Part shown: piece after piece, positions 117-45,587 of the stretch
Numbering within the stretch: the first letter of the stretch is position 1
Layout: every line of letters begins with the position of its first letter
Origin: a virus
Length of the DNA stretch: 45,587 bases
IMG/VR virus record: IMGVR_UViG_3300021197_001357
Span: 1 to 45,587 of that record
Reading direction: 5' to 3' (one strand)
Notes under the pieces: model-generated
Seen by the model: the letters and a program-made list of their open reading frames with translations, nothing else
Told to the model about the DNA's origin: nothing
Database searches by the model: none
Translations under genes and position numbers: made by a program

Positions 117-559
117 TGACTCGCTCCGATTGGTTGCTTTTCTGACAACTTGGCTCGCTCTCTCGAAATGCTTTTCTACTGGTGTGACTTACTCTAACTC
201 AATGCTTTTCCCGTCTTCTGGCTCGCTCATAAATCCTGCTTTTCAAACGACTTGGCTCGCTCGTTCGCAGTGCTTTTCACGTCGTATGGCTCGTTCAGAA
301 TGCATGCTTTTCTTTTTCCTTGGCTCGCTCTCGCACCATGCTTTTCCTTCAAAGTGGCTCGCTCTCGTAATATGCGCTTCTCTTTACGTGGCTCGCTCAC
401 AAGGCTTGCTGATCCTCTTTTTAGGCTCGCTCCGACTGAGTGCTTTTCTTCATTTTTGGCTCGCTCCGCCTTGGGTGCTTTTCCCTCTACGTGGCTCGCT
501 CAGGCATATTGCTTTTCGCACACTCTGGCTCGCTCGGTATCAATGCTTTTCGCTCATCC
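117..559 (-). repeat. TIGR-like dual-repeat, dual-spacer array 1 (13 units)
   Basis: On the plus strand the pattern TGGCTCGCTC - 8 nt - TGCTTTTC - 8 nt recurs 13 times. The first repeats begin at 117, 151, 185, 219, 253, 287, 321, 355, 389, 423, 457, 492 and 526, so the period is 34 (one 35). Both repeats are conserved while both 8-nt stretches differ in every unit. First-spacer examples are cgattggt, tctcgaaa, taactcaa, ataaatcc, gttcgcag; second-spacer examples are tgacaact, tactggtg, ccgtcttc, aaacgact, acgtcgta. Degenerate repeats are tgacttactc (185), tggctcgttc (287), tgcgcttc (373), tgctgatc (407) and aggctcgctc (423). The array starts 4 nt after the stop of the leftward DnaA-like gene and ends at the start of the partial gene at 111, so it is probably transcribed leftward as GAAAAGCA-N8-GAGCGAGCCA-N8. 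This matches the layout of tandem interspaced guide RNA arrays, whose processed RNAs are about 36 nt with two short spacers. Open frames crossing it (repeating GSL and ARS) are artefacts. Confidence 0.85.
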
Positions 560-563
560 TGAA

Positions 564-1094
564 TTAAATAAACGCTGAGTTAGAGTTGTTGATCCCGTGT
601 TTACAGGATGCACACAGCCTGTTGTGTATGCCGTCAGACTCAAATAAACCAGAGCAGTTAAGGCATCTTCTAGTGGTCTTCGCCGCCCTCGGATGCAGCG
701 GCCCTACGGGCCTTCTCTTTCCTGTCTTCTTGCGGACCTTCTCCTTTTTAACACTTTCTTTCGGAAGAGGTACAAGTCTCAGCGATCCGTAAGAATGAAA
801 GCTGGTAAATTCGCCCAACAAGATTTGAGCATCCCTAAATGTTTCAGAATTAACGTCCTTCATGCGGTCGTCTACCGCTTTTTTGGCGTGAAGAGCGGTC
901 GTATGATCCCGATTAAAGTGCTCGGCAATTGAAGAAATTGAAGACTTGGTTAACTTTGACGACATCCAAATTGCCAATTGACGAGGCCACGCTACGTTGC
1001 GAGACCGTTGATCTCCCAACATTACAGGTAATGAGATGTCATAGTGGCGGCACACTGCCCGTTGAATTTTTTTCAGGGTGGCAAGTTCACTCAT
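564..1094 (-). CDS. DnaA domain IV-like DNA-binding protein with C-terminal zinc ribbon
   Basis: The protein has 176 residues from ATG 1094, which overlaps the upstream gene's stop; an ATG at 1130 would add 12. The N-terminal half contains SISSIAEHFNRDHTTALHA, which matches the DnaA C-terminal helix-turn-helix signature (G-R-D-H-T-T-V-x-H-A) that binds DnaA boxes. A basic linker (KKEKVRKKTGKRR) leads to a CxxC...CxxC zinc ribbon (CLNCSGLF...CASCK), like those ending GcrA-type regulators of alphaproteobacteria and their phages. No AAA+ ATPase domain is present, so it cannot replace DnaA. It may mark a phage origin, recruit or antagonise host DnaA, or regulate genes. It is the last protein gene before array 1 and is probably cotranscribed with it. 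Confidence 0.75.
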   Translation of the reverse strand: MSELATLKKIQRAVCRHYDISLPVMLGDQRSRNVAWPRQLAIWMSSKLTKSSISSIAEHFNRDHTTALHAKKAVDDRMKDVNSETFRDAQILLGEFTSFHSYGSLRLVPLPKESVKKEKVRKKTGKRRPVGPLHPRAAKTTRRCLNCSGLFESDGIHNRLCASCKHGINNSNSAFI

Positions 1095-1344
1095 CGGTTT
1101 CATCCATTGTGTAAAGGCCATCGTCCCCATCGTCTATGGTCTCTTGGTTTAAGAAATCCCCGCAAACTGGCACCTCCTTACGGTGCCCTCCGCTGTCTGG
1201 ATAAGCAGACCAACAAACTCGATCTTTTGCTAAATACTTGATTCTGCCCTCCTTCCCGCACTTCCCGCACTGCGCGATAATCTCATCGGAATCCTCATCG
1301 TAACCAATGCGATTGTTAAAATAACAGACATGATTATTTTTCAC
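1087..1344 (-). CDS. Small zinc-ribbon protein, unknown function
   Basis: This 85-aa protein starts at GTG 1344. The start is supported by GGAGG seven bases upstream and by an overlap with the stop of the preceding zinc-knuckle gene. It contains CGKCGKEG and, further on, two single cysteines (RVCWSAYP, VPVCGDF), with a very acidic tail (DDGDDGLYTMDETDE). A CxxC knuckle followed by spaced cysteines suggests one structural zinc. It belongs to a run of short, overlapping leftward genes (2549 down to 564) that look translationally coupled. I do not recognise the family. Confidence 0.6.
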   Translation of the reverse strand: MKNNHVCYFNNRIGYDEDSDEIIAQCGKCGKEGRIKYLAKDRVCWSAYPDSGGHRKEVPVCGDFLNQETIDDGDDGLYTMDETDE

Positions 1345-3305: not shown

Positions 3306-3512
3306 TTAAAGAAAAGCATGCATTTTGAACGAGCCATTTTTTTCGAGTTCCTCGAACTCGTCTTGAACAATCGCAAGAAGGTCTTTGTACTCAAGCTCCA
3401 ACATCTTCGGATCGCTGTGCAGCAAGCTCGGAAAGACGCGCAGGAACCTATCAGCAGCTTCATTAGATTTATCGCCCCACAGATGCGAGGGAATAGCAAT
3501 CGGGTAAGCCAT
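3306..3512 (-). CDS. Small protein translationally coupled to the Tas-like gene
   Basis: The protein has 68 residues. Its ATG overlaps the stop of the Tas-like gene (TAATG), which indicates translational coupling. The sequence begins MAYPIAIPSHLWGDKSNE and has a helical acidic core (LELEYKDLLAIVQDEFEELEKN). The last residues, NGSFKMHAFL, are encoded by the solitary array unit at 3311-3336, so a guide-like sequence overlaps the coding end. Its position immediately after the Nop-domain gene makes it a candidate accessory factor, although nothing in the sequence shows this. No known domain. Confidence 0.55.
   Translation of the reverse strand: MAYPIAIPSHLWGDKSNEAADRFLRVFPSLLHSDPKMLELEYKDLLAIVQDEFEELEKNGSFKMHAFL
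3311..3336 (-). repeat. Solitary TIGR-like unit downstream of the Tas-like gene
   Basis: The plus strand reads GAAAAGCA - tgcatttt - GAACGAGCCA, then a run of seven T. This has the same two repeats, spacing and relative order as array 2. Read on the plus strand, the U-run directly after the unit resembles the end of a short transcript. Read leftward, the unit lies in the 3' end of the small gene after tas. Its spacer (tgcatttt) matches the corresponding spacer of array-1 unit 6 (tgcattct) at 7 of 8 positions, and both use the variant repeat with GAACGAGCCA. It may be a relic, a founder unit or a separate single-guide locus. Confidence 0.7.
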
Positions 3513-4369
3513 TACGATATCTCCGGGCCGGGGGCTTCGATGATGTGTGCATGCTTGAGGATTGCAACGGGGTAGGGATCTGCCGGTGCTTTGCCGTACT
3601 CCCATTCGTACCAACGATAATGCAAGTGACTAAGAAATATTTTAGCCGCATAACGACGAGCACGAGCGTGAAGATGAGCCGGAGGCAATTTGCCAATTGA
3701 GTAGTGAGAGTAAGCTACAGTCGTTTTGCCAACAGTCTTAGCCCTATCCAAAGCGACATCCTTAAACTCCATACTTTCGTTGGCTGCTTCAAGCCGATCT
3801 CGCTCTTCTCTGAATATCTTGCCGTAGAAAGACTTCTTGTGAGCCTGAGTCTTCACGAAAGATTCGCCAGCCTTGAACGCGACCAGCGTTTTTAGCTTCG
3901 CGTTCCAAGGCCGCTTCTTGCCCTTCTCCCATTTCTTCTCGGGGTTCATCCCAGCAAACGACCAGAAGTGTCCGTACGTTGGAGCCTTTCTAATGTCGAG
4001 ATGTGAAAGAAGCCCCGCAGCAATGACTGGGCCAATACCGTGCTGAGCCAGCAACCACCGTCCGACAGGATGATTGTCAGCGTAAACCTGAAGGCCAACC
4101 TTGGCGTTTTTTTCAAGCTGCTCGTAATTGTCACGAGTCAAAGAGAGAACGTGAACAGGCTCTCCCTCTTTTGTCATTGATCGGATTTGAGCACTGGTCG
4201 CAATCCGGTTGTCTTGAACAGTGTAATACTGATCTACAAGAAATCTTGCCTCTTGCTCGCCAAGTGACTGGAACGCAACGCGCTGATCTTTGGTAAGGCG
4301 CTTGACGCTCTCAATGATGAAGTCCTTTTCGAGAGCAAGATCGTCAGATTCGATAGATTGGGTTTCCAT
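3512..4369 (-). CDS. tasA-like: Tas-like Nop/IS110-C-terminal-domain protein (TasA type)
   Basis: The protein has 285 residues from ATG 4369, chosen for the perfect AAGGAGGT five bases upstream (a start at 4393 would add 8 residues). Residues 1-100 are mostly charged helix. A helix-hairpin-helix, AQHGIGPVIAAGLLSHLDI, lies at about 108-126, followed by FWSFAGMNP (135-143), a basic RPWNAKLKTLVAFKAGESF (153-171) and a C-terminal helix rich in R, Y and H (HLHARARRYAAKIFLSHLHYRW). This order matches the Transposase_20 half of IS110/IS116 transposases, the region related to Nop domains that grip box C/D-like guide RNA. The DEDD RuvC half of IS110 enzymes is missing, as is any HNH motif. With the dual-spacer arrays at 117-559 and 43526-43690, the best reading is a TIGR-associated protein without nuclease. 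It would bind tigRNA and then DNA, acting as a blocker or regulator. Assignment is from motif order, not a search. Confidence 0.8.
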   Translation of the reverse strand: METQSIESDDLALEKDFIIESVKRLTKDQRVAFQSLGEQEARFLVDQYYTVQDNRIATSAQIRSMTKEGEPVHVLSLTRDNYEQLEKNAKVGLQVYADNHPVGRWLLAQHGIGPVIAAGLLSHLDIRKAPTYGHFWSFAGMNPEKKWEKGKKRPWNAKLKTLVAFKAGESFVKTQAHKKSFYGKIFREERDRLEAANESMEFKDVALDRAKTVGKTTVAYSHYSIGKLPPAHLHARARRYAAKIFLSHLHYRWYEWEYGKAPADPYPVAILKHAHIIEAPGPEIS

Positions 4370-4508
4370 TTTACCTCCTTGGTTGATCTGCACACGAGAC
4401 TAAGTGCATAAGTAAGGTGCAGTCAACTTCTTTTTGGGCATCAAGGCAAAAAAACTTTTAGCGTTAACCTCTGTTTCTTGACCACAAGACAACTCATGTG
4501 TAATTATC
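4370..4508. other. Divergent intergenic region between tas and terS operons
   Basis: This is an AT-rich control region. Leftward towards tas, TTGACT (complement of 4421-4426) is the only good -35 box; a 17-nt spacer puts a poor TTAGTC at -10, so the tas promoter is uncertain. The same area has direct repeats TAAGTGCA (4401-4408) and TAAG...GGTGCA just after, which could be regulator half-sites. There are no other genes. Confidence 0.3.
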
Positions 4509-42549: not shown

Positions 42550-43113
42550 TTAGACCATTCTTACAAAAACCATCCCCGTTTTTTCCATGAAATCGCGGGT
42601 CATGGTGGAAAACCTCCTAAGCATTGCTGTTAATTCGGGTGAAAACTGCATTGCCCTCATTTCGGCACGATGCATCCACCACCCTGGTGGCTTAATATTA
42701 ACGTGACCCGGAATTTTTTCTTGGCTGGCAGTCATCACGAGTATGCGTTTTGCGTTGTTGCAGACGGTGTCTAGGTAGTTTCCTGCATATTCCGGGGGTA
42801 TGTGTTCAGCAACCTCCACAGACCACACGACATCGAACTGTTCTGGGAACACCACAGGGGCCTTACAGAGGTCGATTAGGGCGATGTTTGAGGGTCCGAG
42901 CACAACTGGGTCCACATCGATGCCAAAAGCCTTGAAGCCCGCCCTCTCGGCTGCTTTGACTTGCCCACCCACACCACATCCGACATCCAGTAGCGTTTTG
43001 CAACCAAGCCTACTGAGCATGGATAGAGCGCCTACGTCCGTGTGAGTTACGTTGTGACTTCCTCCTGCGTAGGGCGGGGCTTTGTAGGTTCCGGCGTTCC
43101 CTTCGTTATTCAT
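42550..43113 (-). CDS. SAM-dependent class I methyltransferase
   Basis: The protein has 187 residues from ATG 43113, overlapping the upstream stop (ATGAATAA). LLDVGCGVGGQVKAAERAGF is motif I (SAM-binding G-x-G-x-G), FGIDVDP motif II, and FDVVWSVEVAEHIPPEYAGN the post-I region found in small-molecule and lipid/sugar methyltransferases (VEHxPP). The end, GHVNIKPPGWWMHRAEMRAM, is the type often found beside glycosyltransferases. The target is unknown. It is coupled with the DUF6378 protein. Confidence 0.8.
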   Translation of the reverse strand: MNNEGNAGTYKAPPYAGGSHNVTHTDVGALSMLSRLGCKTLLDVGCGVGGQVKAAERAGFKAFGIDVDPVVLGPSNIALIDLCKAPVVFPEQFDVVWSVEVAEHIPPEYAGNYLDTVCNNAKRILVMTASQEKIPGHVNIKPPGWWMHRAEMRAMQFSPELTAMLRRFSTMTRDFMEKTGMVFVRMV

Positions 43114-43390
43114 CGAGGGTGGCCTTGAGTTCATACGATAAGCTCGCATATCCAGCGATATCGACGTAGTCGTCTTTGTTCATCGAACCGCTTTGAGAAC
43201 GGGCTATCTTCTGAAGGACCACAAGCTGAGTGATGTCATGGGAATCCAGGGGTTCCCCTGCTTTCGCGTAAAGATAGACGTTCCAGTATTTGGCAGTTTG
43301 CGCGTATAGACTGTGAGGACTTCCGTGTGTTTTCTCTCGGTCCCCTGTTACGAGTTCCAGGGCTTTTTCAAGAATCTTCTTCCGGAGCAT
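43106..43390 (-). CDS. DUF6378-like phage protein (94 aa)
   Basis: ILEKALELVTGDREKTHGSP then AKYWNVYLYAKAGEPLDSHD, ITQLVVLQKIARSQSGSMNK and DDYVDIAGYASLSYE match DUF6378: A-x-x-L-x-x-G-D-R-x-x-x-Y/HG, W-x-x-YL, D-V-x-x-M-x-x-L-K-I-A-R and D-x-x-V-D-x-AGY. These are small phage proteins related by fold to all-alpha NTP pyrophosphohydrolase-like bundles. AAGGGA precedes the ATG. It faces array 2 across a shared control region. Confidence 0.7.
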   Translation of the reverse strand: MLRKKILEKALELVTGDREKTHGSPHSLYAQTAKYWNVYLYAKAGEPLDSHDITQLVVLQKIARSQSGSMNKDDYVDIAGYASLSYELKATLDE

Positions 43391-43461: not shown

Positions 43462-43498
43462 ACTAATGAGTTGACATTAGTGCTCAGTGACTTAATCT
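43462..43498 (+). promoter_or_regulatory. Promoter and palindromic operator upstream of array 2
   Basis: TTGACA (43471-43476), 16-nt spacer, TAATCT (43493-43498). The -35 is nested in the palindrome ACTAATGAGTTGACATTAGT (43462-43481), with 7-bp arms around a 6-nt centre. The predicted start near 43505 lies about 20 nt before the first GAAAAGCA. It shares the ACTAAT half-site with the operator at 8810. The same site could also control the leftward gene at 43390. Confidence 0.55.
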
Positions 43499-43525
43499 AA
43501 ATGCGATGTGCCAGTCATAGCTGAT

Positions 43526-43690
43526 GAAAAGCAAAAGCGACAGAGCGAGCCAAGACCAGCGAAAAGCAACAACCGATGAACGAGCCAAAGTTATCGAAAA
43601 GCATTTCTGTGGAGCGAGCCAAAGTGTGTGAAAAGCAACAGCGCGAAGCGAGTCAATTGGAGTAGAAGAGCAACATAACTGAGCGAAGGT
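43526..43690 (+). repeat. TIGR-like dual-repeat array 2 (5 units)
   Basis: The pattern GAAAAGCA - 8/9 nt - GAGCGAGCCA - 8/9 nt repeats with GAAAAGCA at 43526, 43561, 43596 and 43630, and a variant GAAGAGCA at 43665. The second repeats are at 43543, 43578 (GAACGAGCCA), 43612, 43646 (aagcgagtca) and a decayed gagcgaagg at 43681. Spacers between the first and second repeats are aaagcgaca, acaaccgat, tttctgtg, acagcgcg, acataact; between second and first they are agaccagc, aagttatc, aagtgtgt, attggagta. Decay increases towards the 3' end. This is the reverse complement of array 1, so both give the same RNA strand if this is read rightward from the promoter at 43471. The last repeat supplies the GAAGG before the GTG of the next gene. 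Confidence 0.85.
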
Positions 43691-43697
43691 ATGCCTT

Positions 43698-43922
43698 GTG
43701 GCAAAGACCTACATCCACGTTAATCAGCACATCATTAAGTCGAACAAAAAACACAGCGTCATGGACCCTGTTTTGACGGTTAAGACCAGCAAGCAGAACA
43801 TTAAGACGAACAGCGTTAGCATTGATGGCCCGTGCAGGGTTGTTTACCGGCCAGAGAAGCCTCTTCCGTGTGGCGCGACGGTATGGATCGAGACAGACAC
43901 CAAGTACATCCAGGGTGGCTAG
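43698..43922 (+). CDS. Conserved small phage protein (MAKTYIHVNQH family, 74 aa)
   Basis: GTG 43698, with GAAGG eight bases upstream lying in the final decayed array-2 repeat. AKTYIHVNQHIIKSNKKHSV then SIDGPCRVVYRPEKPLPCGA and TVWIETDTKYIQ is a short conserved family seen in many marine phages (VNQHxI-xN-K...P-VVYRP--PL-CGA-VWIET). Two cysteines. Function unknown; it is coexpressed with array 2 by position. Confidence 0.7.
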   Translation: MAKTYIHVNQHIIKSNKKHSVMDPVLTVKTSKQNIKTNSVSIDGPCRVVYRPEKPLPCGATVWIETDTKYIQGG

Positions 43923-45438: not shown

Positions 45439-45587
45439 CAAGAACCACGGCCCACGGCTTTCCTAATTCCTGTGAAGCGGATTGAATTTTGTGGTGATTA
45501 TGGGTGGGGGATACGCTACGCGGCTCAGCCTATGTCAACCCCGTCTAGGGGGGTATGCCAATTATTATTTGCCCGACCCGACAGAAA
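45439..45587. other. Terminal stretch without a gene
   Basis: 149 bp with no plausible reading frame. A leftward TTGACA (about 45534-45539) has no good -10. The run of G (45549-45554) after ccccg may be a hairpin remnant. It may be the beginning of a control region that continues outside the window. Confidence 0.3.

What the first reader, a model, noticed from the sequence alone, without database searches (positions are those of the whole stretch)
43526..43690. A second array in reverse orientation at the far end of the genome, with its own promoter
Five further units use the same two repeats but different spacers, over 39 kb from the tas gene. TTGACA-16-TAATCT and an operator lie immediately upstream on the same strand. 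One Tas protein would then serve two separately regulated guide sets.
Basis: partly seen in the sequence, partly recalled or inferred. Interest (0 to 1): 0.85.

Follow-up and report, generated by a model that had tools for sequence, protein, structure and literature searches.

The report
Second TIGR guide array, phage leader
This phage carries a second small bank of guide RNAs for its RNA-guided DNA-binding protein, placed between a promoter and another gene about 10 kb from the protein's own gene; relatives keep the bank in the same place but swap nearly all of its guides, which bears on the open question of how such guide banks evolve.

Summary
The second array is real. At 43508-43690 (+) five edge/spacer/loop/spacer units use the same repeats as array 1 (GAGCGAGCCA and GAAAAGCA). 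It scores 75, against at most 14 in shuffled windows. The effector (3512-4393, -) is a nuclease-free Tas protein (TasA). Its sequence and predicted fold match only TasR/TasH, then IS110-type recombinases.

One claim is wrong. The array is not '39 kb from tas at the far end of the genome'. The contig is an opened fragment. Three relatives join its two ends through 4.4-4.9 kb, so array 2 lies about 10 kb from tas and 5.5-7.3 kb from array 1. The 'operator' is unsupported.

Array 2 sits between a promoter whose TTGACA is conserved and the ribosome-binding site of a small ORF, as an mRNA leader without a terminator. All 12 relatives covering the site carry it, with 2-11 units. In the closest relative the flanks are 97-99% identical, but only the last guide is shared. 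One array 2 guide occurs in a relative's array 1.

Best reading: one TasA serves two guide sets in different transcription units, and guides turn over by recombination. Separate timing is inferred, and the targets remain unknown. This is a new variant of TIGR-Tas.

The parts
43508..43690 (+). TIGR array 2: five units. Guides (spacer A/spacer B): TAGCTGAT/AAAGCGACA, AGACCAGC/ACAACCGAT, AAGTTATC/TTTCTGTG, AAGTGTGT/ACAGCGCG, ATTGGAGTA/ACATAACT
43513..43517 (+). 5'-truncated first edge repeat (AGTCA)
   Evidence: sequence; equivalent AGTCA or TGTCA in relatives
43526..43533 (+). loop repeat 1 GAAAAGCA; the others are at 43561, 43596, 43630 and 43665 (the last one GAAGAGCA)
43543..43552 (+). first full edge repeat GAGCGAGCCA; the others are at 43578, 43612 and 43646 (variants), with a truncated one at 43681-43686
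43471..43498 (+). putative sigma-70-type promoter TTGACA-16-TAATCT, which would start RNA at the edge of array 2
   Evidence: sequence; TTGACA conserved in all relatives, also where the flanks have diverged
43698..43922 (+). small ORF (74 aa, phrog_8676, unknown function) whose ribosome-binding site AAGG (43686-43689) touches the last edge repeat; no terminator-like site between array and ORF
43106..43390 (-). divergent neighbour gene (DUF6378)
117..563 (-). TIGR array 1 (13 units), starting right after the TAA stop of the DnaA-like ORF and running into the start of the next gene
3512..4393 (-). tasA: solo Nop-domain Tas protein, the shared effector
   Evidence: phmmer hits TasR 9mty 2.7e-8 and TasH 21kl 9.6e-7; predicted fold hits TasH/TasR
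3311..3336 (+). solo TIGR half-unit GAAAAGCA-TGCATTTT-GAACGAGCCA, absent from relatives L009 and L010

Best explanation
It is a second, distal TIGR (tandem interspaced guide RNA) array of a TasA-type TIGR system. A promoter at 43471-43498 starts RNA at about 43505, next to the 5'-truncated edge repeat. The RNA runs through five guide units into a small gene, so the array forms the 5' leader of an mRNA. Cutting in the edge repeats would release 34-35-nt tigRNAs. These would load onto the TasA made from the other transcription unit, about 10 kb away, and direct it to DNA sites reading 5'-spacer A + reverse complement of spacer B. Because TasA lacks a nuclease domain, the likely effect is blocking or bending of target DNA, probably in rival mobile elements or the host rather than in this phage itself. 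The two arrays form one exchangeable pool of guides under two different transcription units, and guides turn over by recombination at the repeats. Shown: anatomy, conservation, turnover, identity of the effector family. Inferred: transcription, processing, loading, separate timing, effect on targets.
For: Array score far above shuffles. Same repeats in both arrays; both begin GA and end CA, matching the published rule that the ends covary between edge and loop (PMC12045711). Effector: sequence hits to TasR and TasH, fold hits to TasH/TasR only, then IS110. Array 2 at the same site in 12 of 12 relative contigs that span it: L013, L014, L017, L023, L027, L038-L043, L045. Flanks 96.7% and 98.8% identical to L027, yet only the last unit is shared. 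Cross-array guide AAGTTATC/TTYCTGTG type. Downstream genes differ between lineages (phrog_8676 ORF in window, L027 and L017; a 291-aa ORF in L013; neither intact in L023) while the array stays. TTGACA conserved in the sister clade.
Against: No transcript data. The -10 is poor (3 of 6) and the standard promoter scan does not list it. No exact or one-mismatch target (A + rcB) for 108 guides in 352 kb of this phage and mostly related contigs, and no convincing target elsewhere. No terminator after the array, unlike the typical published TIGR array. Spacers are mostly 8 nt, so units are 34-35 nt rather than 36.
Confidence: 0.72

Rival explanations
1. The leader array acts mainly in cis: TasA bound to the tigRNA units in the 5' leader controls translation or stability of the downstream mRNA (autoregulation), and the guides are secondary.
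For: The array lies exactly between promoter and ribosome-binding site; the last edge repeat touches the RBS in the window and lies just before a GGAGGAG in the sister clade.
Against: The downstream gene is not conserved: lost or replaced in L013 and L023 while 7-11 units are kept. Rapid replacement of whole guides is not needed for a cis element.
Confidence: 0.12
2. Array 2 is a decaying or passively copied relic of array 1, with no function of its own.
For: Only 2 units remain in most sister-clade contigs; the last unit has degenerate repeats.
Against: Repeats are kept while spacers differ; the site and TTGACA persist in 12 of 12 relatives across about 72% protein identity of the neighbouring gene, and one lineage has 11 units.
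Confidence: 0.1
3. The arrays belong to one transcription unit or are co-regulated, so there are not two separately controlled guide sets.
For: Sister-clade array 1 (L020, L032) has a similar upstream motif (TTGACT-16-TATCTA) to array 2 (TTGACA-16-TATCTT); the arrays are only 5.5-7.3 kb apart in relatives.
Against: They are on opposite strands. In the window array 1 directly follows a stop codon inside a leftward operon with no TTGACA found upstream, while array 2 is leader-proximal.
Confidence: 0.25

Closest known systems
TIGR-Tas dual-repeat systems, TasA type (Faure et al. 2025, PMC12045711)
   Same: Two alternating short repeats with short spacers, 5'-truncated first edge and 3'-truncated last edge, Nop-domain protein without nuclease, phage host.
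   Different: Published arrays lie next to tas (the survey read 5 kb on each side) and typically end in a rho-independent terminator. Here a second array lies about 10 kb away in another gene's leader without a terminator. Spacers are mostly 8 nt, not 9.
TIGR stem-loop array of Peromyscus gut contig (same paper)
   Same: Guides split into several sub-arrays.
   Different: Those sub-arrays are separated by a ~450-nt intergenic region and use hairpins rather than edge and loop repeats.
IS110/IS1111 bridge-RNA recombinases
   Same: Nop-like RNA-binding domain; weak Pfam match Transposase_20 and lower-ranked fold matches.
   Different: No DEDD catalytic domain, and tandem guide arrays instead of one bridge RNA.
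CRISPR-Cas with several arrays sharing one effector set
   Same: One effector could draw on more than one array (comparison from general knowledge).
   Different: Split 8+8-nt guides, no adaptation genes recognised, Nop-domain protein instead of Cas.

Membership tests
TIGR-Tas (dual-repeat, TasA type) | Two alternating 8-12-nt repeats (edge, loop) separated by ~9-nt spacers | tested here: met
   Edge 10 nt, loop 8 nt, spacers 8-9 nt; unit 34-35 nt
TIGR-Tas (dual-repeat, TasA type) | Edge and loop repeats share box D/box C-like ends that covary | tested here: met
   Both start GA and end CA; rule in PMC12045711
TIGR-Tas (dual-repeat, TasA type) | Nop-domain Tas protein encoded in the same genome | tested here: met
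   3512-4393: phmmer to TasR/TasH, Foldseek to TasH/TasR E about 1e-5; model confidence moderate (pLDDT 67)
TIGR-Tas (dual-repeat, TasA type) | No HNH or RuvC nuclease domain (TasA) | tested here: met
   No nuclease family in Pfam; model all-helical apart from two short strands
TIGR-Tas (dual-repeat, TasA type) | Array adjacent to the tas gene | tested here: not met
   Array 1 is about 3 kb from tas, array 2 about 10 kb. Typical placement, not a strict definition.
TIGR-Tas (dual-repeat, TasA type) | Rho-independent terminator after the array (typical) | tested here: not met
   None between 43686 and 43698; the first terminator-like site is at 43912, beyond most of the ORF. Typical, not a strict definition.
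TIGR-Tas (dual-repeat, TasA type) | Processing to ~36-nt tigRNAs bound by Tas | not testable with these tools
   needs RNA sequencing
TIGR-Tas (dual-repeat, TasA type) | Tandem-spacer DNA targeting | tested here: inconclusive
   No target identified

The most novel reading that the evidence does not exclude
A TIGR system with two guide sets in different transcription units, one carried as the 5' leader of an unrelated gene. The guides form a common pool that is reshuffled between arrays and replaced quickly between near-identical phages, without any adaptation genes recognised.
Probability: 0.45. Interest if true: 0.75.

Novelty: new variant of a known kind. Interest (0 to 1): 0.62.

Why it matters
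TIGR-Tas was described in 2025, and its authors call the origin, maintenance and expansion of the arrays an enigma; targets are unknown. The published search read only 5 kb on each side of tas, so distal arrays like this one would have been missed. The same site in near-identical phages with almost entirely different guides, plus a guide shared between the two array sites, gives natural data on array turnover and makes the recombination hypothesis directly testable. A second array also means guide targets cannot be inferred from the tas-adjacent array alone.

Tried and rejected
(1) Self-targets: 108 guides against 352 kb of this phage and mostly related contigs gave no exact or one-mismatch A+rcB site, and two-mismatch hits did not exceed control arrangements. 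(2) Synonymous-change idea: some homologous guides differ only at positions that would be silent in one reading frame, but 23 guide pairs did not differ from random placement (p 0.2-0.4); dropped. (3) Sister-clade guide TTTGACAC/GCCCTATA resembles a T7/SP6-type promoter core; its exact target is not enriched in viral contigs and there are no multi-copy contigs; unproven lead. (4) Targets of the conserved guides ATTGGAGTA/ACATAACT and CGTAAAGA/TRTTRCGA: hits scattered over unrelated genes; more hits at gap 0 for the second guide (49/8/23) but no converging gene. (5) Tas relatives or arrays in bacterial genomes: none found. (6) Operator palindrome: chance level and not conserved. (7) One call failed because of a wrong frame.

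Full report
What is there. Window 43508-43690 (+) holds five units of the form edge, spacer A, loop, spacer B. Loops at 43526, 43561, 43596 and 43630 are exactly GAAAAGCA, and the fifth (43665) is GAAGAGCA. Edges are GAGCGAGCCA or close variants. The first edge is truncated to AGTCA and the last to GAGCGA, as in published TIGR arrays. The same two repeats make up array 1 on the other strand at 117-563. A simple chain score gives 75.4 for array 2 and 216.0 for array 1. The largest value in 40 dinucleotide shuffles of the whole window is 14.4. No spacer of array 2 equals one of array 1 in this genome.

The effector. ORF 3512-4393 (-) matches the solved TasR (9mty, 2.7e-8) and TasH (21kl, 9.6e-7) by sequence. 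Its predicted structure (pLDDT 67, moderate) matches TasH/TasR chains at E about 1e-5, and only then IS110-type recombinases. It has no nuclease domain by Pfam, so it is a TasA. Relatives at 94-99% and about 76% identity lie in other viral contigs.

Where it lies. The stated 39-kb distance is an artefact of where the contig was cut. In L013, L024 and L027 the DNA equivalent to window positions 45587 and 3 is joined through 4.4-4.9 kb. The window's left-edge ORF is cut off and continues in relatives. In L010 the array 2 site lies about 10 kb from tas (the site itself is just past the end of that contig, so this is read from its neighbouring sequence). The two arrays are 5.5 kb apart in L027 and 7.3 kb apart in L013, pointing toward each other.

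Transcription context. Array 2 is preceded by TTGACA-16-TAATCT at 43471-43498. The TTGACA is kept in all relatives examined, including the diverged sister clade (L017, L038-L043, L045), where the surrounding sequence has changed and the form is TTGACA-16-TATCTT. The -10 is weak and the standard scan does not list the site. The array ends at the ribosome-binding site of ORF 43698-43922, without a terminator. In the sister clade the last edge is followed at once by TTTGGAGGAG and the start of the homologous ORF. Array 2 is therefore a leader. Array 1 begins directly after the stop codon of a DnaA-like ORF in the leftward operon and runs into the start of the next gene. The proposed operator is not better than chance and not conserved.

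Conservation and turnover. All 12 relative contigs that span the site have array 2: 2 units in seven sister-clade contigs, 4 in L017, 6 in L027, 7 in L023, 11 in L013 and L014. The genes downstream differ: the phrog_8676 ORF in the window, L027 and L017, a 291-aa ORF in L013, neither intact in L023. Between the window and L027 the flanks are 96.7% and 98.8% identical, but only the last of 5 and 6 guides is shared. One array 2 guide of the window (AAGTTATC/TTTCTGTG) is in array 1 of L010 with one change, and a weaker case links L027 array 2 to L010 array 1. Several units share one spacer but not the other (for example AGGAAAAA/TGCATTCT and AGAAGAGC/TGCATTCT), which fits recombination at the loop or edge repeat.

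Function. The published geometry (C-5 rule with 8-nt 3' overhangs) implies a target strand reading spacer A followed by the reverse complement of spacer B; this is my derivation. No such site with 0 or 1 mismatch occurs in 352 kb of this phage and mostly related contigs, so self-regulation through near-perfect targets is unlikely. Searches for targets in viral contigs gave only scattered hits. The most likely role is blocking or bending of DNA of competing elements or of the host. That last step is inference.

Novelty. The survey that defined TIGR-Tas read 5 kb on each side of tas, and its text describes arrays upstream and/or downstream of tas; I found no mention of a distal second array there and no other dedicated study in the library apart from a review. 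The supplementary figures and tables of that survey were not read. The parts are known; the distal leader array and the documented guide turnover are the new points.

Noticed in passing
window 3311-3336 (+): A solo TIGR half-unit GAAAAGCA-TGCATTTT-GAACGAGCCA sits at the end of an ORF near tas; L009 and L010 lack exactly this 29-nt stretch. It differs by one base from an array 1 half-unit, so single half-units may move or be copied elsewhere.
   Followed up: partly
L038-L043, L045, L017 (array 2): Sister-clade guides with spacer A TTTGACAC and B GCCCTATA, CCCCTGTA or GATCTATA give targets beginning TTTGACAC-TA, some resembling a T7/SP6-type phage promoter core; not enriched as exact targets.
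   Followed up: partly
L032:14150-14279, L020:4750-4830: In the sister clade the last array 1 unit contains the ATG of the next gene (MKSNTPPVTLEELV...), so array and coding sequence overlap.
   Followed up: no
L036:2330-3526: A more distant TasA (34% identity) lies next to an array with loop GAGAAAACCA-like and edge GAGCGAGCCA repeats.
   Followed up: no
L016:2958-4464: A very long array (about 42 units called) with different loop repeats (GAGAGCACCA-like) next to a fragment of a Tas-like protein.
   Followed up: no
window 564-1130 (-): Phage ORF with a DnaA C-terminal DNA-binding domain directly upstream of array 1.
   Followed up: no
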